Source: Sciurus carolinensis
Taxonomy: Eukaryota; Chordata; Mammalia; Rodentia; Sciuridae
Assembly (NCBI RefSeq): GCF_902686445.1
Contig: NC_062223.1
Coordinates: 39,774,998 to 39,838,997, forward strand
Direction of reading: 5' to 3'
Length of the DNA: 64,000 nt
The notes under the pieces were generated by a model. It ran no database searches, was not told where the DNA came from, and saw only the letters and a program-made list of their open reading frames with translations. Position 1 is the first letter of the stretch. Each line of letters opens with the position of its first letter. The translations under genes and the position numbers were made by a program. Positions 20,838 to 58,000 of the stretch are shown piece by piece.

Positions 20838-20895
20838 ATTCAGAAGATGGAAAGATCCCCCATGTTCTTGGATAGGCAGAATTAATATTGTCAAA

Positions 20896-22068: not shown

Positions 22069-22103
22069 ATGCCCTTCAATTGATGAATGGATCAAGAAAC
22101 TAT

Positions 22104-22146
22104 GATATATATGTATATATATAATATATATATAATATATATATAC
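22104..22146 (+). repeat. (TA)n tract inside L1 ORF2
   Basis: Alternating TA with a few interruptions, placed at the L1 position that reads tggtatatatacaatgg in other copies. It breaks the ORF2 frame. Confidence 0.95.
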
Positions 22147-22311
22147 AATGGAATATTACTCAGCCATAAAGAATGATAAAATGATGGCATTTGCAGGCAA
22201 ATGGATGAAATTGGAGAATATCATGCTAAGTGAGATAAGCCAAACTCAAAAAACGAAAGGACGAATGATCTCGCTGATGAGTGGATGATGACACATAATT
22301 GGGGTGGGAGG

Positions 22312-22350
22312 GGTTAGTGAGGGTTAGGGTTAGAGTTAGGGTTAGGGAGG
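22312..22350 (+). repeat. Telomere-like (GGGTTA)n tract in L1 3' UTR
   Basis: Five or six units of GGGTTAG-type sequence with small variations (gagggttagggttagagtta, then gggttaggg). The full-length L1 at 47 kb has a related but degenerate tract at about 52783-52820, so the tract belongs to the L1 3' UTR and is not a chromosome-end remnant. The G runs could form a quadruplex. Confidence 0.85.
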
Positions 22351-22570
22351 GGGGCAAGAATAGAGGAAGGAATACAGTCGTATTTGCTGAATACAGTCGT
22401 ATAGAGGGAAAAGAGGGGTGAGAGGGGTGGGGGAAAGGGATAAAATAACAGAATGAATCAAACAACATTACCCTATGTAAATTTACGATTACACAAATGG
22501 TATGTCTTTACTCCATGTACAGAGAAACAACATGTATCCCATTTGTTTACAATAAAAAAAATTAAAAAAA

Positions 22571-24544
22571 TAAAAAATAAAAAAAAAGAAGAGAGATAGC
22601 GATGGCCTGGTCAGGTTGTAGCATAAGATGAGGTTCAGTCATCAGATTTTGAATATGTGTCAGAGAAAAATAAATAGGAATTACTGGCAGAAAAAAGTAC
22701 ATCCTTTGCTGGTAAACATTACCTCTTCCTTTCTTCTTTAAAGGTTTCCAACAAGTTAGATTATTTCTTCTTCTAAAGTAGTTTCTAGGTCCCTTCATTT
22801 AGCATCTGTCACATATTACATGTGATGATTACTCCTCCAAGTTAAGTAAAATGATTGAGTGCATTGAACAGTGGACACTACAGAGATGAGCTTTATAAAT
22901 ACTTCAAGAAGAAGCCACAATGGAATCAGACATTCTGCCTATCATTTTGTGCTAGAGCCAGGTTTTCTCTAAGTATTGTTCTTCTGTTGAATATAAAATG
23001 AACTATTTTTCTTCCATTTAGGGAATGTGTTGAATAATTTATATATCTGAAGATGAAGTCACTCACTAGAATAAGATGCTAGTAGATAAAAACTATGAAC
23101 CTCCTATACTAGTTACCACATTTATGTGTTCTGCTTCATATTCTCCTTAGCACATTTTCACAAGAATTGAAATACTATGCATGACATACAAACAATTTAA
23201 ATATTATCTATTACTTCTGAATTTGGATAAGCATGCATATCTAAATACCTGAGTTAATTTCATTATGTAATACTTTTTCTATATTTATACAATTTCATAT
23301 ATTAAAGATTAAAAGAATCTTTTATCTTAATCCGAGTGTCTTTTCTGCTCCTCAGGTTTGAATATCCAAATGTCTATCTGTCTTCTCTGTTGGTCTTATG
23401 TAAACTTTAAACTTAAAGAGTTCACAATTTAGTCATTCTTTTTCACCTCTAAAGTTTCACATGTCATCACAATACTGTTCTCTTGTTTAATGCCATAATC
23501 ACTACCTACTTGCCCAGTTCAGAAATCTACCATTCATTCCCTACATCATTTCTCTTATTATTTTCCCACATTACAGTTTGTCCTGATGCCTTCTCAAGTT
23601 CAGCTATATTTGATTCCCTCTTGGTCTGATCACTCTTGCTTTCTCTCCTATGCTATTAAGATAAACTTCTAAGTAAAATGATCTACTCACATTATTCACT
23701 CAATGGTCCTTTTCTATGAACATAATAGTGAATGATAACATCTGATAATGTTGAGTAATCAAATGATAAAACCTAAACATGACAACTGAAATATCAGTTT
23801 CTTAATAAATTTATTAACCATAATGGTTAATATGGTTATATTCTATTGGATACTTAAGGACAAAATATTTAAGGGTATTTAATATAGTCTCATCTATGTG
23901 AGAAAGTTAATCGTAAGTTCAATAGTGTCAAGGTGTTTCCACTGCTTTTTTTCCAAAGACTCATCATAAATCTGGACCCTGATTATACAATGAATGGATG
24001 CCTAAATGAAAGAAAAAAATAAGTAGACAAATAAAAATTTTATATGCCAACTGACATTTTAAATTTCTATTGTTTCATTACTTGACATGTATCCATTAAA
24101 ATATTTGTTACGTGAGTGAGTAGAAGACTATATATGTGTCACTGAGATTGATATAAACACCCAAAACTTCCAATCTACAAAATTCATTTCTATCAATCAA
24201 ATCCATTTAAAAACATCACTTTCCATAGAGTCCCTTCTCCTGCTTTCCCAACCCTTCATTATTCACTCTTCTCTAAATTTCCAAATTTGAGTTAATCATT
24301 AAATTTGTGATTTTAACTGAAACACCTCAGAGAAAGAAATTACAATGGAAGCAGTAAATAATTTCCTTTTAGAAAGCCATGATTTATTGCATGAAGTAAG
24401 CTCCCCCATCCCCCAAAGCTTTACCCACAGTACACAAAAAATGATTAAGAAGTGCATACATTCTACAGAGTCTGACATTTGTCTTATACTGTTTGGGCTA
24501 CAATATAACAACATGCCATATAGTAGATGTGTCATAAAGACTAA
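22571..24544. other. Unassigned stretch, no gene seen
   Basis: AT-rich sequence with no long open frame. Pyrimidine-rich words around 23450-23660 faintly recall an ancient L2-type LINE but are too diverged to call. Confidence 0.4.
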
Positions 24545-28529: not shown

Positions 28530-31432
28530 TGTTACTATTGTTATTTTAATTAGTGCATAATTATTATACAGACTAGTGTTTTCATTGGGGCATTCCCATG
28601 CAGGCACCTAACACACTTTGATCCATGTCATCCAACAACATTTTCCCTTCCCCATCTCTTCTCTCTCCCCCTGATTCCCCTCTACCACCTACTCATCTCC
28701 CTTCTATTTACATGAGATCCTGTCCCTCCCATGCCTCTTCCTAATATGAGAGAAAACATAACCCTTGACTTTCTATGTCTGTGTTATTTCACTTAACATG
28801 ATGCTTTCTGCTTCTGTTCATTTTCCAAGGAAAAAAAATGTGAGTTTTTTATCTTCTTTGTGGTTAAATCAAACTACAAAGTGTATACATACCATATTTT
28901 ACTTGTCTGTTCATGTGTTAATGGACACCCAGTCAGATTCAGTAACTTGGTTATTGTGAATTGTTCTACTATAAACCCAGGTATGCTTTTATATCTATTG
29001 TATGCTGATTTTAGTTCTTTTTGGGGAAATATGATGGTTCTATTCCTAGTCTTCTGAGGAACCTAAATACTGATTTCCACTGTGGCTGTACTAATTTATG
29101 TTCCCACAAATAGTATACAATGTTTGTTTTTCCCCACAGTCTCACCAACATTTACTGTTATTTGTATCCTCGATGATTATCATTTCAACTTCAGTGAGAT
29201 GAAATCTCAGGATAGTGTTGATTTGCATTTCCCTGAGGGCTAGAGATATTGAACATTTTTATGTAAAATTGTTGGCTATTTGAAATTTTCTTTTTGAGTA
29301 TTGTGTGTTTACTTCATTTGCCCATTTGTTGATTTTTTGTTTGTTTGTTTACTGGCTCTGTGTTTTTTGTTTGTGTGTGTTATTCATATATTCTAGAAAT
29401 TAACCCTCAGTCAGGAGAGAAGCTGACAAATATTTTCTCCCATTTTGTATGTTCCTTGTTCCCACTGTTGCTTCCTTTGCTATGCAGATTTTTAGTTTCA
29501 TGCCATCCCATTTATTGATTCTTGATATTATTTCCTGAGCTATATCAGTCCTATTCAAAAAGTTGCTGGCTATGCCAACATATTGGAGTGGTTCCCCTGT
29601 GTTCACTCTTAGGAGTTGCAAAGTTTCTGGTATTATTTTAGGTCTTTGATATATTTTGAGTTGACTTTTGACAGCGTGAGAAGGATTTATTTTCAATCTT
29701 TTACATATGGATGTCCAGTTTTCCCAACACCATTTGTTAAAGAGGCTTTCTTTTCTCCATTGTAAGTTTTTGGTAACATTGCCCATAACTAGATGATGTA
29801 GCTGCAAGGTTTTGTCTCTGTCTTATATTCTGTTCCATTGGTTTACCTGCCTATTTTATACCACTATGAACCTGGTTTTGTTACAATGACTCTTTAGTAT
29901 AATTTGAAGTTGAGTATTGGGATGCCTACAGTATTACTTTTTTTTCCCTCACAAGTGTTTTAACTATTCTGGATATTTTGTCCTGCCATATATATTTTAG
30001 TATACTTTTTCTATACTAGAAAATATCATTGATATTTTAAAGGAAGTTCTACTGAATCTGTAGATATCTTTTGGTAGTGTGACCATATTAACAATATTGA
30101 TTTTTCTTATTCACGAATATGGGTGGTCTTTCCATTTTCTGGTTTTTACATCTATTTCATTCCCCCCACCAGTGGTCTGAAATTTTCCTTATAGAGGTCT
30201 TTCATCACTTTAGTTAGAGTTATACCTAAGTATTTTATTTTTTGGTGCTACCATGGATTATATATTTTATTTCCTGCTCTTGCAAAATTGCTCTGGCTTA
30301 AGTTTCAGTTACTGCAGGGGTTTCACCCACGTCCTGCATGGATGAGGGAATGCTTAACTGCTGGAGGACAGTGTGCCTCCTATAAATCAATTAATTACCA
30401 ATAAATTTATCTAATCAATAAACACACAAGAAGCAATACTCTTTTCAAATGGGAGGGGGAGTGATGGATCAGGCTATACCAGATCTGGCCTCTAACAAGA
30501 TGGAGTAGCCCACCTTTGCTTTATTTATAGTTGCACAGGTAAAGGGACTGGGACCAAGAGGGACTTCTTCTGTGAAGAACAGTATGGGGTGGAACTAAGG
30601 AAGCCATTTGTTCAGGAAACTAGCATATCATCAGATGGTAAGTCACTCCTACATGGGGCCACTTACTTCCTGGGCTATCTGGAACAGTTTGTCATGGCTG
30701 CCAGGTCCTGGGAGTTAGGTCTCTGTATCCCATAGCTCAAACAAATCTGATTTTGCTAGATATGGACAGCTCTTCACAAGTTACTACACTGAATAAAATT
30801 GGAGAGAGTAGGCATTCTTGTCTTATTCTAATTTTAGAAGAAATGTTTTCAATTTTTCCCCATTCAGTATGATGCAAACTTAGGAATGTTTCTTCAACCT
30901 ATTTTTTCTTCACTGATTTTGTTATAAATTGGAGCTGAATTTTGCAGAAGATTTTTTTTTCTGCATCTATGAACTTTATCATGTGAAGGTGATCATTTTG
31001 TCCTTGATTTTATTTAAGTGGTGTCTCACATGTATTGATTCGTGAATGTTGGACCATCTTTTCATCCCTGGAATGAAACCTACTTGATCATGACATACAA
31101 TCTTTTAAATATGATTTAGAATACAGTGTGATAATACTTCATGATTTTTTTGCATCCATGTGCATTAGGAATATGGGTCTCAAGTTTTATTTATTTTTTT
31201 TTGAAATGCCCTTATCTTGTTTTGGTATCAGAATTATTCTGGGTTTATAAAGTAAATTTGGAAGTATTTTTTTCCCTTTACATTTCCTGAAATAATTAGA
31301 ATAGTGTTGGCACTGGTTCTTCTGTGAGGGTCTAGTAGAATTCAGCTATGAATCTATCTGGTCTTGGGTTTTTCTTTATTATAAGAGTTTCTATTACTGC
31401 TTCCAATCTTATTGCTAGTTATTGCTCTGTTT
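28530..31432 (-). mobile_element. Old L1 3' half, minus strand
   Basis: From left to right this is an L1 in reverse: a pyrimidine-rich 3' UTR (28640-28740), the ORF2 C-terminus, then the reverse-transcriptase region (to about 31432, where L1 similarity stops). A 135-codon minus frame at 29400-29807 is the ORF2 segment with [19 protein letters not shown], which matches the young copies at many residues. It is interrupted by the solo LTR at 30313-30778. Confidence 0.8.
30313..30778 (-). mobile_element. Solo LTR, ERVK-type, with 6-bp target duplication
   Basis: A 466-bp unit. On the minus strand it starts TGTGAAGAGCTGTCC and ends in CCCTGCA, giving the canonical TG...CA ends. A perfect 6-bp direct repeat, agttac, flanks it (30307-30312 and 30779-30784); this length is usual for ERVK/class II. 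A box ctataaataaag near 30520 (minus strand) could serve as TATA and/or poly-A signal. There is no internal region, so it arose by LTR-LTR recombination. Its sequence is unlike the LTR at 35831, so it is another family. Confidence 0.85.
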
Positions 31433-33067: not shown

Positions 33068-33282
33068 TTTTTTACCAGATATGGTAGCACCCTCCTTTAT
33101 TCCCAGCAACTCTGGAAGCTGAGGCAGGAGGATCGCAAGTTCAAAGCCAGCCTCAGAAAAGTGAGGCACTAAGCAACTCAGTGAGAACCTGTCTCTAAAT
33201 AAAATATACAATACAGCTGGTGATGTAGCTCAGGGGTCAAGTGCCCCTGAGTTCAACCCCCAGTACCCCTCCCCCAAATTTT
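33068..33282 (+). mobile_element. Composite B1-dID (MEN-type) SINE
   Basis: The 7SL-like left half (atggtagcacc, cagcaactctggaagctgag, aggaggatcgcaagttcaaa) is joined to an ID-like right half (gatgtagctcaggggtcaag, gttcaacccccagtacccc). It is better preserved than the copy at 9763, and it supports a squirrel-family source. Confidence 0.9.
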
Positions 33283-34759: not shown

Positions 34760-35830
34760 CTTTGTTTTTATTATACTGTTTGAATTAACTCATGACCATC
34801 TCACAATGCAAAATACATTTAGTTCATTTCCAAGAGTTGCCATAATCTTAACACTTTCAAGAATGTTCAAAAGTTTAAGGCCAATGTCTCCTTTGAGACT
34901 CAGGACAAACTCCCAACATGATCTCCTGAAAAAAATCAAAAGCAACTTATAAGTATCCATTACAAAAAGGTACAGAGTAAACAGCTCCATTCAGAAAAAT
35001 AGGGGCAGAGAAAAAAGCAAGACCAAAGTCGAGCCAGGAAAACAAGTCCTGTAGTTCTGTGTCCAGCATCTGGAGGACATGGCATCATGACATCCTCTCC
35101 AGAGGGCTTGTGTAGCTTTGCCCCTGTGGCCTTGTTGGTTGCAGAACAAGTGCATTTCTGTTAGCTTATCTCTACTCCATTCATAAATGTTTCCCTGGTG
35201 ATATACCAAAGTACTGGCATTTCTTAATTTTAGGGGTCTCCACAGCAGTTTTGGTTTCCTCCTCACATCTGCAAGCATTCCTCTCTCAGGGACAGCCCAC
35301 AAGGAATTTGACCCTGGGGCACTTTGCCTGGTCTCCCAGATCTTCCTTTGAAATTTCAGTGGATGCCTCCATGACCTCCAGCATTCTGCATTCCTGCAGA
35401 ACCAGCAACATATGGTTGATACCAAGTTCTGCCGCCATCTTGAGCTGTATTCAAGCCTTCGGGACTATGACTGTGACAACCTCTGAGTGCCTGAGTGACT
35501 GAACAGTTTGAAAAATGTTCTAGGCCCCTTTATTCAGGAAAATTGCCCCACTGGACTCTTCTGAAGAGAATTTTTACTTTTACTCTCTTGAGTCTGAGGT
35601 GAGTGTGGTCTTGCGAGTTCCTGAGATGCTCTCATGCCATCTGTCCTATTGTCTCTGTGCAAGGTCTTTAGCATTTCTTTAGTGGCACTAATGTCTTTAA
35701 CAATTACCATTTTCTGAGCCCCAGTTTTACTCCTGCCTTTCAAGTACAAGTTTTTTTTTCAAATCTTTCTGCTGTGCTTTCTGCACCTGAGTACCACAAT
35801 AAACTTGACTGAAAGCTGCCAGCTATGCTG
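34760..35830 (-). mobile_element. MaLR (ERVL) internal region, left part, minus strand
   Basis: On the minus strand it reads 'caagatggcggcagaacttg', then 'gccacaggggcaaagctaca', 'gatgtcatgatgcc' and 'acaggacttgttttcctgg'. This is the order of the non-coding-looking internal sequence of MaLR retroelements (THE1/MST/ORR1 group). The 144-codon minus frame at 34991-35425 is part of it; related sequences are not known to encode a working protein. The young retrovirus inserted at 35831 splits it from its 5' portion at 43097. Confidence 0.65.
35825..35830 (+). repeat. Target-site duplication, left copy
   Basis: atgctg directly before the 5' LTR, repeated at 43091-43096 directly after the 3' LTR. 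Six bases is the usual length for ERVK/class II integrases. Confidence 0.95.
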
Positions 35831-36040
35831 TGTCGGGGTGCCCGGGACCCCTGGCCCTAGGTGTGGCTAAGATGGTGCCTGGCAGTGAGCCAGAGCAGTT
35901 AACTTTTGCACAAACAACTGACATCATTTTGAGGAAGTTCCAGGGATTGGTTGAGTTCCCTCGTGGACAGTGCATGATCACTGCATGTCTGCATTTACTG
36001 CCTGTATCTGTTCATGCTCTCCCCTCGTGCAAAAAGGCTG

Positions 36041-36064
36041 ATTGGTTACAGTAATGTATATATT
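36041..36064 (+). promoter_or_regulatory. LTR promoter: inverted CCAAT box and TATA box
   Basis: ATTGG (inverted CCAAT) at 36041-36045 and TATATATT at 36057-36064 stand in the expected order for a retroviral U3 promoter. Transcription would start roughly 25-30 bases after the TATA box, near 36085-36095. The same boxes recur in the 3' LTR at +6894. Confidence 0.7.
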
Positions 36065-36138
36065 GGAGTGTAAGTTCCTCTAAGAAAGAGAACAAAGAAA
36101 GAGAACAAAGAAAGAACTGAGAGGATGGGGGTGCGCGC

Positions 36139-36144
36139 AATAAA
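36139..36144 (+). promoter_or_regulatory. Poly-A signal AATAAA in 5' LTR
   Basis: AATAAA is followed after about 20 bases by a GT/T-rich stretch (aggtgtcgtgtctctctg), as expected for the R-U5 boundary. The working copy would be the equivalent in the 3' LTR at 43033-43038. Confidence 0.8.
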
Positions 36145-36198
36145 AAGGCTGAAAAGAACCAGGTGTCGTGTCTCTCTGCGGGCGGGGAGCGCGATAGG

Positions 36199-36216
36199 TG
36201 GTGCCGAAACCCGGGA
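36199..36216 (+). other. Primer-binding site, complementary to tRNA-Phe
   Basis: tggtgccgaaacccggga begins two bases after the LTR end and is complementary to the 3' 18 bases of mammalian tRNA-Phe including CCA. Phe primers are typical of intracisternal A-particle elements. This supports class II (ERVK) placement. Confidence 0.9.
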
Positions 36217-36231
36217 ACCCGAGGAAAAATA

Positions 36232-36390
36232 AAGAGTAAGTTTTCTTTTTTTCTTTCATTCAAGACGTAAATAGTCCGAGAGTAAGTTTTCATTCAAGAC
36301 GTAAATAGTCCGAGAGTAAGTTTTCATTCAAGACGTAAATAGTCCGAGAGTAAGTTTTTCAATTCAAGACATAAATAGTCCGAGAATAAG
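36232..36390 (+). repeat. Leader tandem repeat 1 (34-bp unit, GTAAGT in each copy)
   Basis: The unit runs from gagtaagttttcattcaaga through cgtaaatagtccga. GTAAGT, the intron-side splice-donor consensus, occurs at 36236-36241, 36282-36287, 36316-36321 and 36350-36355. Spacing is 34 bp for the last three; the first unit carries a 12-base T/C insertion. In each copy the preceding base is A rather than G, so donor strength is uncertain. Confidence 0.9.
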
Positions 36391-36454
36391 ATAGTGAGAC
36401 AGTCTCGACGTTCACAGCATTGCGACAAGCTGAAGTAATTAAAAGGTAAATCTA

Positions 36455-36529
36455 AGCAGTGATATTCATTTTAAGACCTTGAGTCCGAGCAGTGATATTC
36501 ATTTTAAGACCTTGAGTCCGAGCAGTGAT
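36455..36529 (+). repeat. Leader tandem repeat 2 (33-bp unit)
   Basis: Two exact copies (36455-36487 and 36488-36520), plus nine bases of a third, of a unit that starts agcagtgatattcattttaa and ends ttgagtccg. The word agtccgag is shared with the 34-bp repeat upstream, so the two arrays may have a common origin. Confidence 0.9.
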
Positions 36530-36539
36530 CAGAGCTGTG

Positions 36540-39500
36540 TGTATGGTGTGTTATTTTTGTGTTTGTTGTGTGGCTTGTTTGTGTGCTTGGAGCTCTTAGT
36601 GCTGTAAGATTTAATCACAGGAACAGAATTGTCTAAGATTGGGAGATAATTGTTTCATGATTTTCTGCATTCAAACCTAACCTGATTTCTCAACCAGGAA
36701 AAAAAGGGTTAAAAAGTCCTGGGTGATCCTCCCTCCCCTCTGCCTGGCCTTGTCAAAGCCTGCAATGGAATGTAAATTACAGCAGTCTCAGCGGGAAGGA
36801 GGAGGGGTAACCTGAAGAAAAGAAAAAAAAAAAAAGGTGTCCGTTTTAAACTTAACTAACTTATTTTCTAGGATTCTTCGTTTGTTTGTTTTTCTTTAAT
36901 GCTGTATCTTTGAGCTCATAATTTTGATCCTGCATACCTAGGTTAATGATTTTTTTTTCTTTTTGATCAGTTCTATTTTTTATTCAACTGAAGTTTTTAA
37001 ACATCTGTTTCATTGCAATGAACATTTACCTATAAAGTTACAAGGCCTTTGATTTTGTGTTATGTGTTATGTTGTGCTGTCTAATGTCATGTTTTGTTAA
37101 AACTGAGCGCTCTTAAAATTAAAATTTAAAAATGGATCCAAATACTTTTATTCACGTGATTTAAAAAGGTTCAATTTAAATTGGGTAAACTAATAAAAGT
37201 AAAATATCTTTAAAAATAACTTGCAAGTCTCCAGGTGGTCAAACTAATGAAATGTTAATGTTAAACAATGTCTAATATCAATTGCTTCTAGGACTTTTCT
37301 TCAGCAGGAAAGAGGCAACAGATCCTGTTCAGGACACTTGTCTGATATCTTGGTTTTTATAAAATAAATAAATTGGAGTTAACATGTATGGGATTACTCA
37401 AATGTGTTTGTAGAGACGTCTGGTTAATTTACAAAGTTAAAATGCTAATTGTTAAATAACATCAAGTACTTTTAACTCCTTAAATTACTTGGGGTAACAT
37501 ACTTAAACATTATTGGTGTTTTCATAGGTTGGTAAATAAAAAGGGTTTACAATTACTTTATGTCCTCACTAAACTAGAAACAAGGTTACTAAGAGTTATG
37601 TCCTAACAAGTGGAATTCTATATACAAAGGGTCCCAAAAGTTTCAACTGTGTTTCAATTAAGAGTACTATAAACAACAGAATATTTAATCTTATTAAAAT
37701 AGAGCAATTTATCTAAATTCAGAAATTTCATAAGAGTTGTTTCAGAATGTGAACAAAAAGGGGTCAACAGATAGGAAAGAGAAAATAAAAGGTTCTGGGT
37801 TTAAAATGTATTTAATAAAAAGGAAAAGGAAATGTTTCTGGGTAAGAAAGTCTGTGTGTAAGTAAAGGGCAAGTTTCAACAAGTCTGTGTATAACTAAGT
37901 TGTTTGTATGTATGTAAAACAGCTAAAGCTATTTAAGGTTTTTCCTAAGGTGAAATACTAATGTTCTAATATAAGCCAAAGTTTAATCTATATGGTAAAA
38001 TGACATGGTAAAATGGCAAGGATTTCTTAGAAACACTAATTTACTCTTAACTTTGTGTCTCTTAAGTTTTATTCTTTAGAACAATTAGTCTTAAAAATTG
38101 GGGTGTATACAATTATGGTTAAACAACTGTTAAAGTATTGTACTGTGTTACAGAGTCTAAATTTTTCTTTAAAAACTAAATTTGGTAAGAAAAAAGGTGT
38201 CAAGGTAATTGTGAAATGGTTTCTAGTTGTATATTAAATGTGTTCATATTTTCCAGGTATGCAAGTTTTTAAAGCAGAAAATTTATCAAGCTGCTATTCT
38301 CCAGATTAAACTTGTCTGTAATGGTAATCTTAAACTTATAAAGAGTAAATTTTAATTGGGAATTTATTTCTGTCATTTAATGTTCTATTATGGGACATAT
38401 TATCAGTAAGGTATATGTAAAATGGGTTACTTATTTCACTGAGATAAAAATTTAAATGTAAATATATATCTAAGAGTTAGTGACAGCCTGATTTGTTTAA
38501 AGGTTCATATTGTAAAAGGTGAAAACATTTTGCTACACAAAAGAAAAGTTAAAAGCTCTCTCAGCCTTTCTTTGATTCCTGTTTTGGATATAATGTTAGA
38601 CTGTGTTAACTAATGTTCATATGGACTCAGAAATCAATATATATAAACTTCTTAATTGACATTTAAGAAAGAGTATAATGCGTTATAGCAAATATGGGAC
38701 AACAATGACTGAGATTGGGGTCCCTGACTTCATGACTGTAGCATGCCTGGTGCCTGGAAGTGTTCCTGTGTAGGAGCACAAGATGCCTAACTGCTGTGGC
38801 AGTAACCTCCCTGGGGAGGCTCTGTACAGGAGTCCTATCAGCTCTTACATTGATATCAGGCACACAGCTCTTGGGCAGAAAGAAATTGTTTTGCTAGGTA
38901 ACCAGTGTTTCATCAGTTCCCTTCTCTAGTTCCTGCCCACCTTACAGTAACTTTGGACAGTGGACTTCTTTGAGAGCTACACAGAGTTCCTAACATTGTA
39001 CTTTGCAGTTGTGGGAAAAGGTTGCATAGATGGTCTAGTCTCTATAACTCTCCTAAAAACAAAGAATAATGCTTACATAGTCTCTAAAATAATAAGACAT
39101 GTATAAAGATTGCTAACATAACTCTTTAGGTCTGCATTTCCATCAGAGAATAGAGCTCCATCTGATCTCAGCTTAATCTTCAAAATCTGTGTTTATAAAC
39201 CTTTATTTTCTAATACTCCTTTGACCCTCACTGAACTTGAAAATTTGGTCATGCTGGTCATGGCAAAAGGGGCAAAAATTAGTTGTAGGATTAGAACACT
39301 TAAGATCTATAAAGAGTCACGCCTTACCTGAGATAAGGCTCTGCCTCCCACCTTACTGCATGTTAGAGTGACTCCAAAATAAGTCAGACTTCAGCTTATT
39401 TAAAGTTATAATCAATAGATTGGTTTTTTGTTGTAAAATTACTATGATCTCAAATAGGAAATATAATGTGGTTCTCAGTCAAAATTCAAGATAGCTATTA

Positions 39501-41580
39501 TACAAGCAGAATATATTTTTACTCTTGCTAATTTCATTTTGTAAAACTGTTACCTGTTAATGTTTTGCAGAAGTAGCTGCTTCAAGAACACGCAACCTAG
39601 GTAACTTATGATAATAAGCCATCACCTATAGAACAGATAGTGGTAACTTCCAGAACTAATGCAGACTCCAGTTAGATAAAAGGGTAAATAACTGTAAAGT
39701 TATGGACATTAAAGTTAAAGCCCAGTACTCTTACTTTATGACTGGTGAAACTGGCTTGCTGGATGATTAAGATCAAACTTAGAGATTGGAATTAAATACA
39801 GAAGGCAAGATAGGCCAGTATTTGGATCTTTTGTCCTCAGTCAGCCTGAACCCACGAACAAGAGAACTTCTCTAAGGAGCTTTGCAACTCTGTGTCACAC
39901 AACCTCCTGATCAAGGAGATTGTTGAGACTAGAGGATGAGAATCGCTCAGTGCATCTGCTGCAGAGGAGGGTCATGGAAAAAGGGAGACACCCCTTAATG
40001 CTTCCAAAGGAAGTCACCTCATCAAGGAGACCCTGCCTAACCAATGGTACTGGAGGAGCTAAGAAGCTGCTCTTCAGTTCTCTACAAGTGGCCCCTGTGG
40101 GAACTCAGCTGACTCTTTAACAAGACAGGAACCAGGTCAATTTGACCAGCTTGATCTTAGACACCCAGCAAAACAGTGAAAACCAAAATATAGCCATTCT
40201 TGGGCATTTAAGAGAAATAATAATTAAATGTAACTTAAGATGTACACTTATGTTAGTCCACTAGAATAAAGACTGGAAGCTACAAATGAAAGAAAGATTC
40301 TTCAGCAAATGTGCCTGATAACTATCAAGAGAAACTGCCAGAGTCAGAAGTTTTTAGTCAGTTTAAGGCCTGCAGATCTTCCTAAGCTACACAGGTAGAC
40401 TTAATCTATGTTTGCTTGTATGATTACCTAGCCCTAAGTAACAGAAGTATTAGAGCTCTCTACTAAACACAGGTTATACCGATAAAGGGATATATTACAA
40501 AATCAGATGACTTAAGTAGCTTAACTATATTTTTTGGGATATCTATGACATTAAGAGTTAAATGTTGTGTTTACATTCCTGATAACCTGGAGAATGTTAA
40601 AGTTCCCAAATAAAGGCCTTGTCCTTTCCAGCCTTTGCTAGGTCTGGTTATGGGAACAATTTCTCAGTTCTTCCACCTCCTGGTGAGAGATTGACTTCTG
40701 TCATTTTCATGATACTCAGTGGCATGTTCCAGATGCTGCAACATTTACTTTGTACTAATTTCATTTCAGTACTCATGTCTTTTTGTTCTTCTATCATAGA
40801 AGCACCCACCCCCAGATGACTTTACAACCTGCTCTTCCCCAACCAGACTTCTACCTTGGACTCCTCGATTGACCCGATTTTTTAAAAAAAGGAACTCCAA
40901 ACTGCTTGCCCCTCACTGCCCCCTTTCAGCTTCGAAGCAGCCAGAACGACCGACGCCCCCTTTTCCTTAAAGCAGTTGGGAGTTCCTATAGCTAAAGCGG
41001 GGAATGAAGCCAGAATTAAGGACAGGTAGTTAGTGTAGAAATAGGGAATTGGGTCAATTCGAGGAAATGAAGCCATGAAGCCATCTGCCTTTGCAAATGT
41101 CAAGGATCTCCGGAGCCCATTGATTTACCAAATTTACCTGCCTTTATCAAGGACTGCAAGCAAGGAGATGCTAATTGATGCCCCCTGGGCCCTTACCTGC
41201 CTGAATCACCTTGGCCCTCCCCCTGCCCATGGTTTCTCACTTAATGCAAAACCAGGCCTAGTCACGAAGGCAGGAAGGAGAGTAAGGTAAGGGGGGAGAG
41301 AACTGAAGAACAAAGGAAACTTTGACCTATAGGGGATGTAGGGTGCGCTCACTTCTCGGGACTTTTGAATTATCAGCCATGGCCCCTTTCTCCCTGCCGG
41401 GAGAAGTCTGTATTATTCCCTTTAAACAATCCATACTATGGTCCTTACTCAACAGTACCAAATGATTAAGCAAACTGATAACCAAGGCAGGATGGACAAA
41501 TGGATATAAGATTCTATCCATGATAAACAAAAAGGGGGAATAAAGGAGACCTTCAGGTCCCCTAAAGATAAACTTTCTCT
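36540..41580 (+). other. ERV internal region without recognisable gag, pro or pol
   Basis: About 5 kb between the leader and env. The longest open frames are below 75 codons on either strand, and I see no Gag major-homology, zinc-knuckle, protease DTG, reverse-transcriptase or integrase motifs. The part 36840-38650 is very AT-rich; a GC-richer block occupies 40800-41300. A pyrimidine tract ending in ctatcatag at 40789-40799 looks like a splice acceptor and could serve an env-type subgenomic RNA. The origin of this sequence is unknown to me: it could be captured non-viral sequence, a relic of another retrovirus, or very decayed gag-pol carried along by non-autonomous replication. Confidence 0.7.
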
Positions 41581-41589
41581 TTGTCTCTT

Positions 41590-42568
41590 TGTTTGGGGTT
41601 TTTTTAACTCTGGGTAATAAGGGTAACCCGGTGCTTTACTGGAGCTGCGGCACAGTTTGTGTGTTTCCATGGAATAAACTAACTTACAACCTCTTTTTAG
41701 TCTCTTAGGAGGAACAGTTCAACTATGTAACAAAACAACTGCTTCTCTCAATTGTACTTCAGATTTGTGCTATCTCTCAATGTTAAAATGCTTCTAGGTT
41801 CCTGCTGGCAGACTTAATGTGTGTTCCTACCTTCCTACCAGTCCCAGTCTCTGTTACAGATGATGAATTGCCAGTATTGCTTTCCAGAAATAAGAGGGAC
41901 TTTGGAATCACCGCGGCAGTCATTACCGCCGTAGTTGCATCAGCGGCAGCAGCCACTGCAGCAGCTGTAGCCTTAACTGCGTCAGTACAGTCTGCAGCTA
42001 CACTCAATAATGTGGTTCAACAGACTGCTACTGCTTTATCCACTCAGCAAGCAGTGGATCAACACCTAAAAGCAGGGATTCTTCTTGTAACCAGCGAGTG
42101 GACTTACTTCAAGAACAAATGGACATTTTACAGGAACTGTTAAACGTGGGATGTATTTATCATCTGATGGGACTGTGCGTTACACCTGTAGCTTACCATA
42201 ACTTCAGCTATGCAGCAAACTTGTCTAGAATCTTATCTGTTCAGCTTCGTACCAACTGGTCTTATGAATTTGATAATCTTACTGCTATTCTTAGATCTCA
42301 AATTGTTAGCCTTAACGCTACTAGAGTCGATATAGCGCCAATGTCTGAAGTGCTAAGTTGGATATCCTCTTCTTTCAGCTTTGTAAAGCTATGGGCAGGA
42401 ATGGGAGCTTTATTTATCCTCATGGTTATTACTGTTATCTTCCTCACGCGCTTTATCATGCGCATGCGCCAAGATTATGCTAGAGATCGCATCATCTTCC
42501 ATCAGGCCATGGCCGCCCTAGAGGCCGGCAGTTCCCCACAAGTATGGCTCACGATGCTGGACCGGTAG
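41590..42568 (+). pseudogene. env: Retroviral env remnant (end of SU and most of TM), frameshifted
   Basis: Upstream of 41817 short stretches read like the C-terminal part of a surface subunit (YWSCG; LNCTSDLCYLS) but in different frames, with stops. The frame 41817-42143 (108 codons) has a furin-type RNKR at codons 24-27 and a long alanine/valine-rich fusion-peptide-like stretch from codon 29. A second frame, 42098-42568 (156 codons, opening at GTG), continues the transmembrane subunit: a heptad-like start, C19 and C27 (CX7C, as in MMTV-like envelopes), five NX(S/T) sites, a membrane span at about 98-117 and a 39-residue tail. A frameshift between 42060 and 42143 and the broken surface subunit mean no functional envelope is made. 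Confidence 0.85.
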
Positions 42569-42698
42569 TCATACGGGTAAGGAAGGAGGTGACCCCGTAC
42601 CGACCTAAGACAGGAGCTGTAGCATGCTCTACAGTCATCCAATGACGGGTAAGGACGGTGGTTGACCACTCCGCCTAAGACAGGCACGGTCCCGAGCC
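42556..42698 (+). promoter_or_regulatory. Constitutive transport element (CTE), NXF1/TAP-binding type
   Basis: ACGGGTAAGGA occurs at 42573-42583 and 42645-42655; CCTAAGACAGG occurs at 42604-42614 and 42674-42684. The order is A-B-A'-B'. In an extended hairpin A faces B' and B faces A', giving two identical internal loops related by two-fold symmetry, which is the fold known for the Mason-Pfizer virus CTE. A perfect 6-bp apical stem ctgtag/ctacag lies at 42617-42634, and a basal stem joins 42556-42564 with 42687-42697. The position between the env stop (42566-42568) and the polypurine tract is the same as in Mason-Pfizer virus. By family knowledge it binds the mRNA exporter NXF1/TAP and exports unspliced RNA. 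Confidence 0.92.
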
Positions 42699-42710
42699 TA
42701 ATTTTATAAT

Positions 42711-42724
42711 AAAAAAGGGGGAAC
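42711..42724 (+). other. Polypurine tract
   Basis: aaaaaagggggaac directly precedes the 3' LTR. This is the expected primer for plus-strand DNA synthesis. A similar run, aaaaagggggaa, is present at 41529-41540. Confidence 0.9.
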
Positions 42725-43090
42725 TGTCGGGGTGCCCGGGACCCCTGGCCCTAGGTGTGGCTAAGATGGCGCCTGGCAGTGAGCCAGAGCAGTTAACTTT
42801 TGCACAAACAACTGACATCATTTTGAGGAAGTTCCAGGGATTGGTTGAGTTCCCTCGTGGACAGTGCATGATCACTGCATGTCTGCATTTACTGCCTGTA
42901 TCTGTTCATGCTCTCCCCTCGTGCAAAAAGGCTGATTGGTTACAGTAATGTATATATTGGAGTGTAAGTTCCTCTAAGAAAGAGAACAAAGAAAGAGAAC
43001 AAAGAAAGAACTGAGAGGATGGGGGTGCGCGCAATAAAAAGGCTGAAAAGAACCAGGTGTCGTGTCTCTCTGCGGGCGGGGAGCGCGATA
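42725..43090 (+). repeat. 3' LTR
   Basis: 366 bp, identical by eye to the 5' LTR except C at 42770. The poly-A signal AATAAA lies at 43033-43038. It ends GCGATA and is followed at once by the target duplication atgctg (43091-43096). Confidence 0.95.
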
Positions 43091-43096
43091 ATGCTG
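43091..43096 (+). repeat. Target-site duplication, right copy
   Basis: atgctg, matching 35825-35830 exactly. Confidence 0.95.
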
Positions 43097-47845: not shown

Positions 47846-48749
47846 ATGAGAAAACAAGGGAAGAAAATCTCCCAAACAAACCTAGATACTATATCAATAA
47901 AACCCAATGACAGCACAGCAGAAGAAATGTCACAAAGGGAATTCAGAATGTACATAATTAAAACAATCAGGGAGGCAAACGAGGAGATGAAAGAGCAAAT
48001 GCAGGCAATTAAGGAAGAGATGAAAGAGCAAATGCAGGCATTAAATGATCGCACCGATTTAAAAGAGCAAATAAGGGAAGCAAAAGATCATTTCAATAAA
48101 GAATTAGAAATAACTGGGAAAAAAACAAACAGAAATCCTTGAAATGAAGGAAACAATAAGCCAAGTTAAAAACTCCATAGAAAGCATAACCAATAGGATA
48201 GAACACCTGAAAGACAGAACCTCAGACATTGAAGACAAAATATTTAATCTTGAAAACAAAATTGACCAAACAGAGAAGATGGTAAGATATCATGAACAGA
48301 ATCTACAAGAATTAAAAGATATCATGAAAAGGTCAAATTTAAGAATTATTGCGATTGAGGAAGGCTTAGAGAAACAAACCAAAGGAATAAACAATCTATT
48401 CAATGAAATAATATCAGAAAATTTCCCAAACCTGAAGAATGAAATGAAAAACCAGGTACAAGAGGCTTATAGAACTCCAAACAAACAAAATTACAACAGA
48501 CCCACACCAAGGCACATTATTATGAAAATACCTAACATACAAAATAAAGACAGAATTTTAAAGGCCTCGAGTGAAAAGAATCAAATTACATTCAGGTGGA
48601 AACCAATAAGAATATCAGAAGATTTTTCAATCCAGACCCTAAAAGCTAGAAGGGTCTGGAACAACATTTACCAAGACCTGAAAGAAAATGATGCCAACCA
48701 AGAATCTTATACCCAACAAAACTTACTTTCAGATTTGACGACAAAATAA
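47846..48749 (+). pseudogene. L1 ORF1 (RNA-binding protein), frameshifted
   Basis: ORF1p is the trimeric RNA-binding chaperone of L1. The ATG at 47846 opens a 98-codon frame (to 48142), and a +1 shift continues into a 201-codon frame (48144-48749); the shift falls near the A run at 48118-48126. Codons 45-70 of the first part form a coiled coil with an 11-residue unit EEMKEQMQAIK repeated as EEMKEQMQALN. The second frame carries the rest of the coiled coil and the RRM and C-terminal regions (LRIIAIEEG; PRHIIMKIPN). A stop cuts the C-terminal end early. The related copy at 58173-58865 lacks the coiled-coil duplication. Confidence 0.9.
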
Positions 48750-48933
48750 AATCCTTCCATGAAAAACAAAAGATAAAAGAATTTACAAAAAGAAAGCCGG
48801 CATTACAGAACATTCTCAGCAAAATATTCCATGAGGAAGAGATGAAAAACAACGATGCAAATCAGCAACAGGAGGAACTAGCCTAAAGGAATAGCCAAAT
48901 AAAGGAGAAACCAAATCATGTCAAAAAACAAAA

Positions 48934-51900
48934 ATGAGTCAAATGACTGGGAATACAAATCATATCACAATAATAACCCTGAATGTTAATGGCCTGAATT
49001 CATCAATCAAAAGACATAGACTAACAGATTGGATTAAAAAAAGAGATCCAACAATAGGCTGCCTGCAAGAGACTCATCTCATAGAAAGAGATAACCACAG
49101 ACTAAAGGTGAAAGGATGGGAAAAAAATACCATGCAAACAACACAGAAAAAAAAAAAAAAAAAAAGGAATATCCATCCTCATTTCAGTTAATGTGAACTT
49201 CAAGCCAAAACTAGTCAGAAGGGATAAAGAAGGACATTACATACTGCTTAAGGGAAGCATAAATCAGCAAGACAGAACAATCATAAATATCTATGCCCTG
49301 AACATTGTCTCATCCATGTACATCAAACAAATCCTTATCAATTCCAGAAATCAAACAGACCATAACACAATAATACTAGATGATTTTAACACACCTCTCT
49401 CACCACTGGATAGATCTTCCAAACAAAAATTGAATAAAAAAACCACAGATCTCAATTAACACAATCAACAATTTAGACTTAATAGACATATATAGAATAT
49501 ACCATCCAACAAAGAGTGAATACACTTTCTTCTTAGCAGCACATGGATTCTTCTCTAGAATAGACCATATTTTATGCCACAAAACTAGTTAGCAATTACA
49601 AGAAGATAGAGATGCTACCTTGTACTCTATCAGATCATAATGGATTAAAATTAGAAATAAATGACAGAATAAAAAATGGAAACTTCTCCAATACTGGAGA
49701 TTAAATAATATGCTATTATATGATGAATGGATAACAGAAGACATCAGGAGGGAAATAAAAAAATCTTAGAAGTAAACGAGAACAAAGACACAACATATCA
49801 AAATCTCTGGGACACTATGAAAGCAGTACTTAGAGGAAGATTTATTTCATGGGACTCATTCAACAAAACAAGTAAATAAATGACTTAACACTACAGCTAA
49901 AAGCCCTAGAAAAAGAAGAACAGAGCAACACCAAAAGTAGTAAAAGACGGGAAATAGTTAAATCAGAGCCGAAATCAATGAAACTGAAACAAAAGAAACA
50001 ATCAAAAAAATTAACAAAATAAAGAGTTGGATCTTTGAAAAATAAACAAAATTGATAAACCCTTAGCCACACTAACAAATAGAAAGAGAGAGAAAACTCA
50101 AATTACTAAAATATGGAATGAAAAAGGAAGTATCACTACAGACAGGAGTGAAATACAAAACATAATTAGAAGCTATTTTGAAAAATCTATATTCCAAGAA
50201 AACAGAAAACATCAAACACATCAGCAAGTTTCTAGAGACATATGAATTACCTAAATTGAACCAGGAGGACATACACAACTTAAATAATTCAATTTCAAGC
50301 AAAGAAATAGAAGAGGTCATCAAAAGACTACCAAGAAAAAAAGTCCGGGACCAGATGGGTTCTCAGCTGAGTTCTACAAAACCTTTAAAGAAGAGCTCAT
50401 TCCAATACTCCTCAAAATATTCCATGAAATAGAAGAGGAGGGAACCCTCCCAAACTTATACTGAAAGCCAATATCACCCTGATATGTAAACCAGACAGAG
50501 ACACATCGAGGAAAGAAAATTTCAGACCAATATCCTTAATGAACACTGATGCAAAAATTCTCAACAAAATTTTAGCAAATTGCATACAAAAATATATTAA
50601 AAAGATAGTGCACTATGATCAAGTGGGTTTTATCCCAGGGATGCAAGGTTGGTTCAACATCCGGAAATCAATAAATGTCATTCACCATATCAACAGAATT
50701 AAAGTTAAGAATCACATAATTATTGAGATAGTTGCAGAAAAAACATTTGAAAAAATACAGCATCCATTCATGCTCAAAACAGTAGAAAAAATAGAGAGTG
50801 GGAATATTCCTCAACATTGTAAAGACCATCTACGCTAAGCCCATGGCCAATATCATTCTAAATGGTGAAAAACTGAAACTGTTCCCCCTAAAAACTGGAA
50901 CAAAGCAGGGATGCCCTCTTTCACCGCTTGTATTCAACATTGTCCTTGAGACTCTAGCCAGAGCAATCAGACAAACCAAAGAAATTAAAGGGATACGAAT
51001 AGGAAAAGAAGAGCTCAAACTATCCCTGTTCACTTATGACATGATTATATTTAGAGGAACCTGGAAATTCCACCAGAAAACTTTTAGAACTCATAAGTGA
51101 ATTCAGTAAAGTAGCAGGTAACAAGATCAATGCTCATAAATCCAATGCATTTTTATACATAAGTGATGAATCTTCAGAAAGAGAAGTTAGGAAAACTACC
51201 CCATTCACAATAGCCTCGAAAAAAATAAAATATTTGGTAATCAATCTAACAAAAGAGGTGAAAGACCTCTACAGTTAGAACTAAAGAACACTAGAGAAAG
51301 AAATTAAAGAAAATCTTAGAAGATGGAAAGATCTCTCATGTTCTTGGATAGGCAGAATCAATATTGTCAAAATGGCCATACTACCAAAAGTGCTATACAG
51401 ATTCAATGCAATTCCAATTAAAATCCCAATGATGTACCTTACAGAAATAGAGCAAGCAGTTATGAAATTCATCTGGAAGAATAAGAGAAGCAGAATAGCT
51501 AAAGCAATCCTTAGCAGGAAGAGTGAAGCAGCGGTATCAAATACCAGATCTTCAACTCTACTACAAAGCAACAGTAACAAAAATGGCATGGTATTGGTAC
51601 CAAAATAGACAGGTAAATCAATGGTACAGAATAGAGGACATGGACACAAACCCAAATAAATACAATTTTTTCATACTAGACAAAGGTGCCAAAAATATGC
51701 AATGGAGAAAAGATAGCCTCTTCAACAAATGGTGCTGGGAAAACTGGAAATCCATATGCAACAGAATGAAATTAAACCCCTACCTCTCACCCTGCACATA
51801 AATCAACTCAAAATGGATCAAAGACCTTGGAATCAGACTAGAGAATCTGCATCTTATAGAAGAAAAAGTAGGTCCAAATCTTCAACATGTTGGCTTAGGA

Positions 51901-52695
51901 TCAGACTTCCTTAAAAGGACTCCCATAGCACAAGAAATAAAAGCAAGAATCTACAACTGGGATGGATTCAAACTAAAAAGATTTCTCTCAGCAAAGGAAA
52001 CTATCAGTAATGTGAAGAGAGAGCCTAGAGAGTGGGAGAAATTCTTTGCCACACATACTTCAGATAAACCACTAATTTCCAGAATCTATAAAGAACTCAA
52101 AAAACTCTACACCAAGAATACAAATAGCCCAATCACACAACAAATGGGCTAAGGAAATGAACAGACACTTCATAGAAGAAGATCTACAAGCAATCAACAG
52201 ATATATGAAAAAATGTTCATCGTCTCTAATAATCAGAGAAATGCAAATTAAAACTACCCTAAGATTCCATCTCACCCAAATGAGAATGGTGATTATCAAG
52301 AACACAAGCAACAATAGGTGTTGGAGAGGATGTGGGGAAAAAGGTACAGTCATACATTGCTGGTGGGGTTGCAAATTAGTGCAGCCACTCAGGAAAGCAG
52401 TATGGATTTCCTCAGAAAACTTGGAATGGAACCACCATTTGACCCAGCTATCCCACTCCTTGGCCTATACCCAAAGGACTTAAAGTCAGCATACTACAGA
52501 GATACAGCCACATCAATGTTCTTAGCTGCTCAATTCACAAAAGCCAGATTGTGGAACCAACCTAGATGTCCTTCAATTGATGAATGGATAAAGAAACTGT
52601 GGTACATATATACAATGGAATACTACTCAGCCATAAAGAATGATAAAATTATAGCATTTGCAGGCAAATGGATGAAATTGGAGAATATCATGTGA
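48934..52695 (+). pseudogene. L1 ORF2 (endonuclease/reverse transcriptase), broken
   Basis: The start at 48934 gives the endonuclease N-terminus with ITLNVNGLN (catalytic Asn) and QETHL (catalytic Glu). After 85 codons an expanded A run (49146-49165) throws the frame. Further pieces are readable at 49193-49459, 50178-50432, 50539-50838 (reverse-transcriptase start, [14 protein letters not shown]), 50798-51100, 51372-51801 and 52157-52695 (cysteine-rich end). The reverse-transcriptase active site reads FTYD at 51029-51040 instead of F-A-D-D, so the first catalytic aspartate is Tyr. At least eight breaks in total; no function. Confidence 0.9.
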
Positions 52696-54656: not shown

Positions 54657-55029
54657 TTCCTTAGCCCATTTGTTCTGTGATTGGGCTATTTGTATTCATT
54701 CAAGGGAAATCAATACGGATATCAGCAGATTTTTCAACCCATACCCTAAAAGCTAGAAGGGCCTAGAACAACATTTTTCAAGCTCTGAAAGAAAACGGAT
54801 GCCAACCAAGAATCTTATACCCAGAAAAACTTACCTTTAGATTTGACGATAAAATAAAATCCTTTCGTAAAAATCAAAAGCTAAAAGAATTTACAAAAAG
54901 AAAGCCAGCACTACAGAACATTCTCAGCAAAATATTCCATGAGGAAGAGATGAAAAATGATGTAAATCAGCAAAGGGAGGAACTACCGTAAAGGAATAGC
55001 CAAATAAAGGAGAAACCAAGTCTTGTCAA

Positions 55030-58000
55030 AAAAATGAGCCAAATCATATCACAATAATAACCCTGAGTGTTAATGGCCTGAACTCATCAATCAAAAGACA
55101 TAGACTGGCAGATTGGATTAAAACGAAAGATCCAACAATTTGCTGCCTGCAAGAGACTCATCTTCTGGAAAGTCATACCCACAGACTAAGGAGAAAGGAT
55201 GGGAAAAAATATACCAAGCACATGGACACAGCAAAAAAGCTGGAGTACCCATCCTCATATCAGATAATGTGGATTTCATGCGAAAGTTAGTCAGAAGGGA
55301 TAAAGAAGGACATTTCATACTGCTTAAATGAAGAATAAATCAGCAAGATATAGCAATCATAAAAATCTATGCCCCAAACAGTGACTCATCAATATACATC
55401 AAACAAACCCTTCTCGATTCCAGAAATCAAATAGACCATAACACAATAATACTAGGTGATTTTAACACACCTCTTTCACCACTGGACAGATCCTCCAAAC
55501 AAAAATTGAACAAAGAAACCACAGATCTCAGTAACACAATCAATAATTTAGAGTTAACAAACATATATAGAATATACCATCCAACAAAGAGTGAATACAC
55601 TTTCTTCTCAGCAGCACATGGGTCCTTCTCTAGAATAGACCATATTTTATGCCACAAAACTAGTTAGCAAATACAAGAAGATAGAGATACTACCTTATAT
55701 TCTATCAGATCATAATGGATTAAAAATAGAAATAAATTTCAAAGTAAAAACCAGAAACTACTCCATACCTGGAGATTAAATAATATGCTATTGTATGATA
55801 AATGGATAACAGAAGACATCAGGAAGGAAATTTAACTATTCTTAGAGGTAAACAAGAACAAAGACACATCATATCAAAATCTCTGGCACGCTATGAAAGC
55901 AATACTTAGAGGAAAATTTATTTCATGGAGCATATTCAATAAAAGAAGAAAAAATCAACAAATAAACGACTTAAAACTACAGATTAAAGCCCTAGAAAAA
56001 GAAGAACATATCAATACCAAAAGTAGTAGAAGACAGGAAATAGTTCAAGTCAGAACTGAAATCAAAAAAATTGAAACAAAAGAAACAATTGAAAAAATTG
56101 ACAAAATAAAAAGTTGGTTCTTTGAAAAAATAAACTAAATTGATAAACCCTTAGCCAAATGAACAAAGAGAATGAGAGAGAAAACTTAAATTACTAAAAT
56201 TCAGAATAAACAAGGAAATATCACAACAGACACGAGTGAAATACAAATAATAATTAGAAGCTATTTTGAAAATCTATACTCCAAAAAATCACAAAATCTC
56301 AAAGACATCAACAGGTTTCTAGAGACAAATTAATTACTAAACTGAATCAGGAGGGGATACACAATTTAAATAGATCAATTTCAAGCAATGAAATAGAAGA
56401 GGTCATCAAAAGACTACCAACAAAGAAAGGTCTGGGACTAGATGGGTTCTCAGCCAAGTTCTACAAAACCTTTAAAGAAGAGCTCATTCCAATACTCCTC
56501 AAAATATTCCATGAAATAGAAGAGGAGAGAACCCTCCCAAACTCATTCTATGAAGCCCATATCACCCTGATACCTAAACCAGACAGAGACACATCAAGGA
56601 AAGAAAATTTCAGACCAATATCCTTAATGAATATCGATGCAAAAATTCTCAACAAAATTTTAGCAAATTGCATACAAATGTATATTAAAAAGATAGTGCA
56701 CCACGATCAAGTGGGTTTTATCCCAGGGATGCAAGGTTGGTTCAACATTCGGAAATCAATAAATGTCATTCACCATATCAGCAGACTTAAAGTTAAGAAT
56801 CACGTGATTATTTCAATAGATGCAGAAAAAGCATTCGATAAAATACAGCATCCCTTCATGCTCAAAACACTAGAAAAAATGGGGATAGTGTGAACATTCC
56901 TTAACATTATAAAGACCATCTACACTAAGCCCATGCCCAATATCATTCTAAATGGTGAAAAACTGAAAGCATTCCCCCTAATGACTGGAACAAGGCAGGG
57001 ATGCCCTCTTTCACCACTTCTATTCAACATTGTCCTCAAAACTGTCGCCATACAGTTAGGCAGACCAAGGAAATTAAAGGGCTACAAATAGGAAAAAAAC
57101 AACTCAAAGTATCCCTGTTCACTGACGACATGATTATATATTTAGAGGAACCTGGAAATTCTACCAGAATACTTTTAGAACTCATAAGTGAATTCAGTAA
57201 AGTAGCAGGATATAAGATTAATGCTTATAAATCCAATGCATTTTTATACATAAGTGATGAATCTTCAGAAAGAGAAGTTAGGAAAACTACTCCATTCACA
57301 ATAGCTGCAAAAATAAAATAAAATACTTGGGAATCAATCTAACAAAGGAGGTGAAAGACCTCTGTAATGAGAACTACAGAACACTAAAGAAAGAAAGTAA
57401 AGAAAATCTTAGAAGATGGAAAGATCTCCCATGTTCTTGGATAGGCAGAATTAATATTGTCAAAATGGCCTTACTACCAAAAGTGCTATACAGATTCGAT
57501 GCAATTCCAATTAAAATCTGAATGATGTACCTTACAGAAATAGAGTAAGCAATTATGAAATTCATCTGGAAGAATAAGAGAAGCAGAGTAGCTAAAGCAA
57601 TCCTTAGCAGGAAGAGCGAAGCAGGGGGTATCGCAATACCAAAATTTCAACTGTACTACAAAGCAACAGTAACAACAACAGTATGGTATTGGCATCAAAA
57701 TAGACAGGCAGATCAATGGTACAGAATAGAGGACACGGACACAAACCCAAATAAATACAATTTTCTCATACTAAACAAAAGTGCCAAAAATATGCAATGG
57801 AAAAAATATAGCCTCTTCAACAAATGGTGCTGGGAAAACTGGAAATCCATATGCAACAGAATGAAATTAAACCCCTATCTCTCACCCTGTACATAAATCA
57901 ACTCAAAATGGATTAAGGACCTTGAAATCATACCAGAGAACCTGCATCTTATAGAAGAAAAAGTAGGTCCAAATCTTCAACATGTTGACTTAGGATCAGA

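What the first reader, a model, noticed from the sequence alone, without database searches (positions are those of the whole stretch)
35831..43090. Young chimeric-looking ERVK element: IAP-type primer site, CTE, MMTV-like TM, no gag-pol
Seen: paired 366-bp LTRs, 6-bp target duplication, tRNA-Phe primer site, CTE, polypurine tract and a broken env, but no recognisable gag, pro or pol in 7.26 kb. Known: Phe primers mark IAPs, the CTE is a Mason-Pfizer/IAP feature, and CX7C is the TM spacing of MMTV-like envelopes. Inference: this is a rodent (probably squirrel) non-autonomous family, like ETn in mouse, that kept the cis signals for transcription, priming, export and packaging. It may not have been described in this lineage.
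Basis: partly seen in the sequence, partly recalled or inferred. Interest (0 to 1): 0.8.

Follow-up and report, generated by a model that had tools for sequence, protein, structure and literature searches.

The report
Young retroviral passenger carrying host-like DNA
This is a recently inserted, defective retrovirus-like element, probably in a squirrel, whose own genes are mostly replaced by about 5,000 bases that look like ordinary host DNA, so it was most likely copied by the proteins of a related virus.

Summary
The anatomy is real. Paired 366-bp LTRs differ at 1 site, with a 6-bp target duplication, a perfect tRNA-Phe primer site, a polypurine tract and a two-lobed CTE-like element. No gag, pro or pol domain appears in six frames of the interior, while the same treatment finds LINE-1 RT and, weakly, the element's env. 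Env is a fragment (41604-42565) with two stops and a frame change. Phe primer plus a two-cysteine beta-type TM needs no chimera: mouse IAPE elements have both (PMC7472051, PMC3758190, passages). New here: the ~5 kb interior has CpG observed/expected 0.15, like the host flanks (0.13), against 0.51-1.21 in LTRs, leader, env and 3' end. This favours captured, long-methylated DNA (host locus or old ERV) over gag-pol decayed in place. Best reading: a non-autonomous, trans-mobilised IAPE-like ERV2 that works like mouse ETn and deer-mouse non-autonomous ERVKs (PMC10089650, passages). Copy number, helper, parent locus and Dfam status could not be tested. New member of a known kind.

The parts
35825..35830 (.). 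5' copy of the 6-bp target-site duplication ATGCTG
   Evidence: read
35831..36196 (+). 5' LTR, 366 bp; TATA-like 36057, AATAAA 36139; ends TG...TA
36199..36216 (+). primer binding site, exact 18-nt match to tRNA-Phe 3' end
   Evidence: tRNA letters recalled
36254..36390 (+). leader tandem repeat, 34-nt unit x4.0 (96%); GTAAGT at 36236, 36282, 36316, 36350
36455..36529 (+). second leader tandem repeat, 33-nt unit x2.3, probably a diverged form of the 34-nt unit (3 of 2000 shuffles score as high)
36540..41603 (+). non-coding interior with host-like CpG depletion, in place of gag-pro-pol and most of SU; edges approximate
41604..42565 (+). env fragment: C-terminal SU and TM; stops at 41706 and 41784, frame change near 42089; TM with CX7C loop
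42573..42684 (+). two-lobed CTE-like export element between env and 3' LTR
   Evidence: fold
42711..42724 (+). polypurine tract
42725..43090 (+). 3' LTR
43091..43096 (.). 3' copy of the target-site duplication ATGCTG
   Evidence: read

Best explanation
A young non-autonomous class II (ERV2/ERVK) element of IAPE-like type. An env-bearing, tRNA-Phe-primed progenitor kept its LTRs, primer site, leader, TM tail, export element and polypurine tract, while gag-pro-pol and most of SU were replaced by about 5 kb of host-derived (or old ERV-derived) methylated DNA through recombination. Its RNA was transcribed from the LTR, then packaged, reverse-transcribed and integrated by proteins of a related intact element. 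Shown: anatomy, absence of recognised coding domains, env lesions, CpG contrast. Inferred: recombination, source of the interior, helper, route of mobilisation.
For: LTR pair, duplication and PBS intact. 0 Pfam families in 6 of 6 X-masked frames of 36540-41480; the same masking finds RVT_1 in a decayed LINE-1 (best E 3.6e-14) and GP41 in env (E 0.0042, below cut-off). Env homology begins at 41604 in the best case. Three env lesions are unlikely since insertion at the LTR rate: P=0.0009, or 0.085 at the upper bound of LTR divergence (14% disabling share assumed). CpG o/e: interior 0.15, flanks 0.133, LTRs 0.51 and 0.55, leader 1.21, env 0.51, 3' end 0.76; best two-breakpoint fit gains 27 log units. 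Of 549 flank windows of env length (962 bp) 0 reach 0.51; of 561 of LTR length 4 do. Precedent: deer-mouse non-autonomous ERVKs keep homology mainly just upstream of the 3' LTR and are thought to have swapped their interior (PMC10089650).
Against: Only one copy is seen; none elsewhere in the window. No helper, parent locus or RNA was seen. At the upper bound of LTR divergence the env lesions alone are not decisive. The CpG step is not a clean boundary: the SU part of env (41604-41910) is also CpG-poor, 0.16, and the high value comes from 41911-42565, 0.64; the fitted segment is 36521-41910. The patch 40801-41004 is CpG-richer, 0.58, so the interior may be composite. The leader value is raised by its repeats (array 1.84, but 1.14 and 1.25 outside the 34-mer array). 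Some retroviral genomes are CpG-poor by themselves (recalled), so low CpG alone does not prove host origin.
Confidence: 0.72

Rival explanations
1. A formerly complete IAPE-like provirus whose gag-pro-pol decayed in place, or was lost in this single copy after insertion.
For: Env is broken by stops and a frame change; no second copy in the window; CpG-poor sequence runs on into the SU part of env.
Against: One LTR difference in 366 allows about 1.3 expected substitutions in the 962-bp env stretch (7.3 at the upper bound), too few to erase gag-pol. CpG loss is not shared by LTRs, leader and TM.
Confidence: 0.08
2. The interior is wholly or partly the remains of an older class I ERV captured by the element, making a class II/class I mosaic.
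For: A purine run directly before TG at 40994-41006, a second PPT-like 12-mer at 41529-41540 (mean 0.02 matches expected per window) and a CpG-richer patch 40801-41004. The look of 41005-41460 as a class I LTR is from recall only.
Against: No retroviral Pfam family at E<=10 in three forward frames of 39800-41010; no second copy of that stretch in the window.
Confidence: 0.12
3. A true chimera of separate retroviral lineages (IAP primer site, type-D CTE, MMTV TM).
For: Each feature is present. In the passages I read, a 3'-end two-fold CTE is described for type-D viruses (PMC4330390), not for IAPE.
Against: IAPEs combine Phe PBS and beta-type env (PMC7472051, PMC3758190). [quoted passage not shown]
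Confidence: 0.06

Closest known systems
Mouse IAPE (intracisternal A-particle element with envelope)
   Same: tRNA-Phe primer and beta-type env (PMC7472051 Figure 2 legend; PMC3758190 passage)
   Different: IAPE copies with gag-pro-pol exist (recalled); here they are absent and SU is truncated. No IAPE sequence was compared directly.
Mouse ETn / MusD pair
   Same: works alike: LTRs and cis signals kept, non-autonomous, mobilised by a coding relative (PMC7472051, PMC10089650 passages)
   Different: ETn uses tRNA-Lys (PMC7472051); this one tRNA-Phe
Deer-mouse non-autonomous ERVK subfamilies (mysTR-related)
   Same: no coding domains; interior thought swapped, region before the 3' LTR retained (PMC10089650)
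   Different: no env found in the mysTR-related subfamilies (PMC10089650); here the retained 3' part includes an env TM
Prairie-dog ERV-PDRV.1 and GPDRV (sciurid betaretroviruses)
   Same: class II retroviruses of squirrels (PMC7354474, passages)
   Different: both have gag-pro-pol; GPDRV TM is CX6CC and its LTR is 403 bp bounded by CAAG/CTTG; no sequence comparison made

Membership tests
IAP/IAPE | tRNA-Phe primer binding site | tested here: met
   exact 18-nt site, (tRNA letters recalled)
IAP/IAPE | beta-type TM with two-cysteine loop | tested here: met
   CX7C in window frame and in 8 of 8 aligned relatives (sequences, alignment)
IAP/IAPE | RT/pol clusters with IAPs | not testable with these tools
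   no pol in the element
IAP/IAPE | direct homology to mouse IAPE env | not tested
   no row named IAPE or in the 120 of 156 rows listed; best of 40 long Envs is from Peromyscus
Non-autonomous ERVK (ETn-like) | no coding domains for mobilisation | tested here: met
[quoted passage not shown]
   genome search unreachable
ETn proper | tRNA-Lys primer | tested here: not met
   Phe primer
CTE (NXF1-binding) | two-fold symmetric stem-loop near the 3' end | tested here: inconclusive
   two lobes pair in the fold but z -1.40 and no Rfam hit at the gathering score
MMTV-like env | TM clusters with MMTV within beta-type | not tested
   no row labelled MMTV in the tree

The most novel reading that the evidence does not exclude
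A squirrel lineage holds an undescribed IAPE-derived passenger family that captured about 5 kb of a host locus, and the copying of that host-like RNA by a helper retrovirus is recent or ongoing.
Probability: 0.33. Interest if true: 0.55.

Novelty: new member of a known kind. Interest (0 to 1): 0.4.

Why it matters
If it is a family, it is a Phe-primed counterpart of ETn outside mouse-like rodents, and the CpG contrast inside a young element suggests a simple test for captured resident DNA as against decayed viral genes.

Tried and rejected
No close DNA or protein kin in viral contigs: (10 stretches matched a pattern, 0 confirmed); genome contigs one search found 0. PDB search with the TM piece gave three hits at E 0.014-0.71, all to unrelated molecules. 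Rfam gave no match at the gathering score and one chance-level hit to a mycobacterial sRNA, E 0.077. Self-comparison found no second copy of LTR, leader, interior or env elsewhere in the window, apart from the LTR pair itself. ARAGORN found no tRNA genes. The TM tree (93 of 139 fetched proteins had an alignment spanning at least 121 residues of the query piece and were kept, plus the window row; my species labels left some named rows as 'unlabelled') puts the window in a 14-row group with mustelid, Peromyscus, Nannospalax, Cricetulus and unlabelled rows, support 89/99, but no starred set holds it. In one search, tblastn with 40 long Envs at E<=10 gave 188 HSPs, also scattered outside env, including 17 that start in 41400-41599 on the minus strand; I did not follow these. 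One search scored only the 7998 candidates sharing most words and lists 120 of 156 hits. One search left 37401-38599 out.
Full report
Anatomy. The element spans 35831-43090. Its LTRs are 366 bp each and differ at one site, where the 5' copy reads TG and the 3' copy CG, as expected for loss of a methylated CpG. A 6-bp duplication, ATGCTG, flanks the element. Two bases after the 5' LTR lies an exact 18-nt tRNA-Phe primer site, the only one reported in the window at up to 3 errors (tRNA letters recalled). A polypurine tract abuts the 3' LTR. With assumed rates of 2-3e-9 per site per year, one difference means about 0.5-0.7 million years, with an upper bound of 2.5-3.8.

Leader. After the primer site come four copies of a 34-nt unit (36254-36390) and 2.3 copies of a 33-nt unit (36455-36529). 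In alignment the two units reach a score that only 3 of 2000 shuffles match, so they are probably diverged forms of one repeat. Of seven GTAAGT in the element, the core of a 5' splice site, four lie in the leader, at 36236, 36282, 36316 and 36350. Use as splice donors is inference.

No gag-pro-pol. Six frames of 36540-41480, with X at each stop, give 0 Pfam families at E<=0.1. The same masking applied to a decayed LINE-1 in the window finds RVT_1 (best E 3.6e-14), and applied to the env region finds GP41 weakly, E 0.0042, below its curated cut-off; the open env pieces alone give GP41 at 0.00011 and 0.018, also below cut-off. Forward frames of 36197-37400, 38600-39800 and 39800-41010 at E<=10 give only PsaF and TRIF-NTD, both below cut-off and not retroviral. 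The longest stop-to-stop frame inside 36540-41580 is 83 aa, and 164 of 200 shuffles reach that; the env remnant's 185 aa is reached by 0 of 200.

Env. Against full-length relatives, homology begins at 41604 in the best case, at residue 254 of a 562-aa Peromyscus protein (with other relatives shown at 41643-41766), and ends at 42559-42565 in the four compared closely, with stops at 41706 and 41784 and a frame change near 42089. The window's TM piece found 1 relative among 33 candidates, from Mustela erminea, at 56% identity over 68%. A search with that protein listed 46, itself included, and a search with an alignment of 8 gave 156, of which 120 are listed, among them mustelids, muroid rodents, pangolins, lemurs and rabbit. 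The loop is CX7C in 8 of 8 aligned. The tree places the window loosely with mustelid, Peromyscus, Nannospalax, Cricetulus and unlabelled sequences, without starred support.

Export element. Between env and the 3' LTR, ACGGGTAAGGA and CCTAAGACAGG each occur twice, 70-72 nt apart, and pair as two lobes in the minimum-energy fold. PMC4330390 (passages) describes the CTE of type-D viruses as a two-fold symmetric stem-loop near the 3' end that binds NXF1. Against: fold z-score -1.40 with 18 of 200 shuffles as stable, and no Rfam match at the gathering score.

Host-like interior. CpG observed/expected is 0.15 in 36540-41603 and 0.133 in the rest of the window (94 windows of 5 kb: 0.05-0.21), but 0.51 and 0.55 in the LTRs, 1.21 in the leader, 0.51 in env and 0.76 in the 3' end. 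Of 549 flank windows of env length none reaches 0.51, and 4 of 561 of LTR length do. A two-breakpoint fit gains 27 log units for a low-CpG segment 36521-41910, with start 36431-37511 and end 40790-41910 within 2 units. The boundary is not clean: the SU part of env, 41604-41910, has 0.16, and the rest of env 0.64; the leader value is raised by its repeats, though 1.14 and 1.25 remain in the two short stretches measured outside the 34-nt array. Decay in place should have struck LTRs, leader and TM as well. I infer that the interior was resident methylated DNA before the element took it up, with the caveat that some retroviral genomes are CpG-poor by themselves (recalled). Whether it was a host locus or an old ERV is open: a patch at 40801-41004 is CpG-richer, 0.58, a purine run precedes TG at 41005, and a second copy of the 12-mer of the polypurine tract lies at 41529-41540 (expected 0.02).

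Already defective when inserted. At the rate of the LTRs, about 1.3 substitutions are expected in the 962-bp env stretch. Three disabling changes then have P=0.0009, or 0.085 at the upper 95% bound, assuming 14% of changes disable. Together with the missing genes this means the inserted RNA probably came from an already defective parent, so the proteins came from elsewhere.

Not chimeric in primer and TM. PMC7472051 (passages) lists both IAP and IAPE as tRNA-Phe primed. [quoted passage not shown] The CTE is less settled: PMC1904242 (passages) describes IAP export elements, one in pol and one called RTE, beside the type-D CTEs, and I saw no passage placing a two-lobed CTE before the 3' LTR of an IAPE.

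Known kind. In deer mouse the most abundant lineage-specific ERVK subfamilies are non-autonomous and lack coding domains. The part before the 3' LTR is the one best shared with autonomous kin, and a swap of the interior is proposed, with ETn cited (PMC10089650, passages). Prairie dogs have described betaretroviruses, but those keep gag-pro-pol, and the exogenous one has a CX6CC TM (PMC7354474, passages). Of nine paper searches, five used squirrel terms; in their listed rows (1 of 1, 20 of 295, 12 of 25, 12 of 154 and 10 of 59; titles and starts of abstracts) I saw no element of this kind. The library lacks most subscription papers, and no repeat library was on hand, so I do not claim that it is undescribed.

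Limits. Copy number, helper, RNA and species could not be tested; the genome search did not complete. The squirrel assignment rests on one composite SINE recognised from memory.

Noticed in passing
window 36193-36196 and 43087-43090: Both LTRs end in TA, not the usual CA, while the start is TGTCG; the parent RNA seemingly carried the variant, yet integration with a 6-bp duplication succeeded.
   Followed up: partly
window 36254-36529: Leader built of two related tandem repeats, with repeated GTAAGT motifs.
   Followed up: partly
window 41529-41540: Second exact copy of the polypurine-tract 12-mer, 63 bases upstream of where env homology begins.
   Followed up: partly
window 40801-41460: CpG-richer patch and purine run before TG; reminds me, from recall only, of a class I ERV 3' end and LTR.
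   Followed up: partly
window 33075-33270: B1-like plus ID-like composite SINE, recalled as the sciurid MEN type.
   Followed up: partly
window 48585-52059 and 54694-58154: Two LINE-1-like copies 88.6% alike over 3.5 kb, with further related fragments at 10163-11488, 20842-22574 and 29031-30243 (RVT_1 in the first copy).
   Followed up: partly
window 63128-63242: 60-nt tandem repeat, 1.9 copies, 100% alike.
   Followed up: no
P0012: Env of this type listed under the chigger mite Leptotrombidium deliense; possibly host DNA carried over from a rodent (my guess).
   Followed up: no
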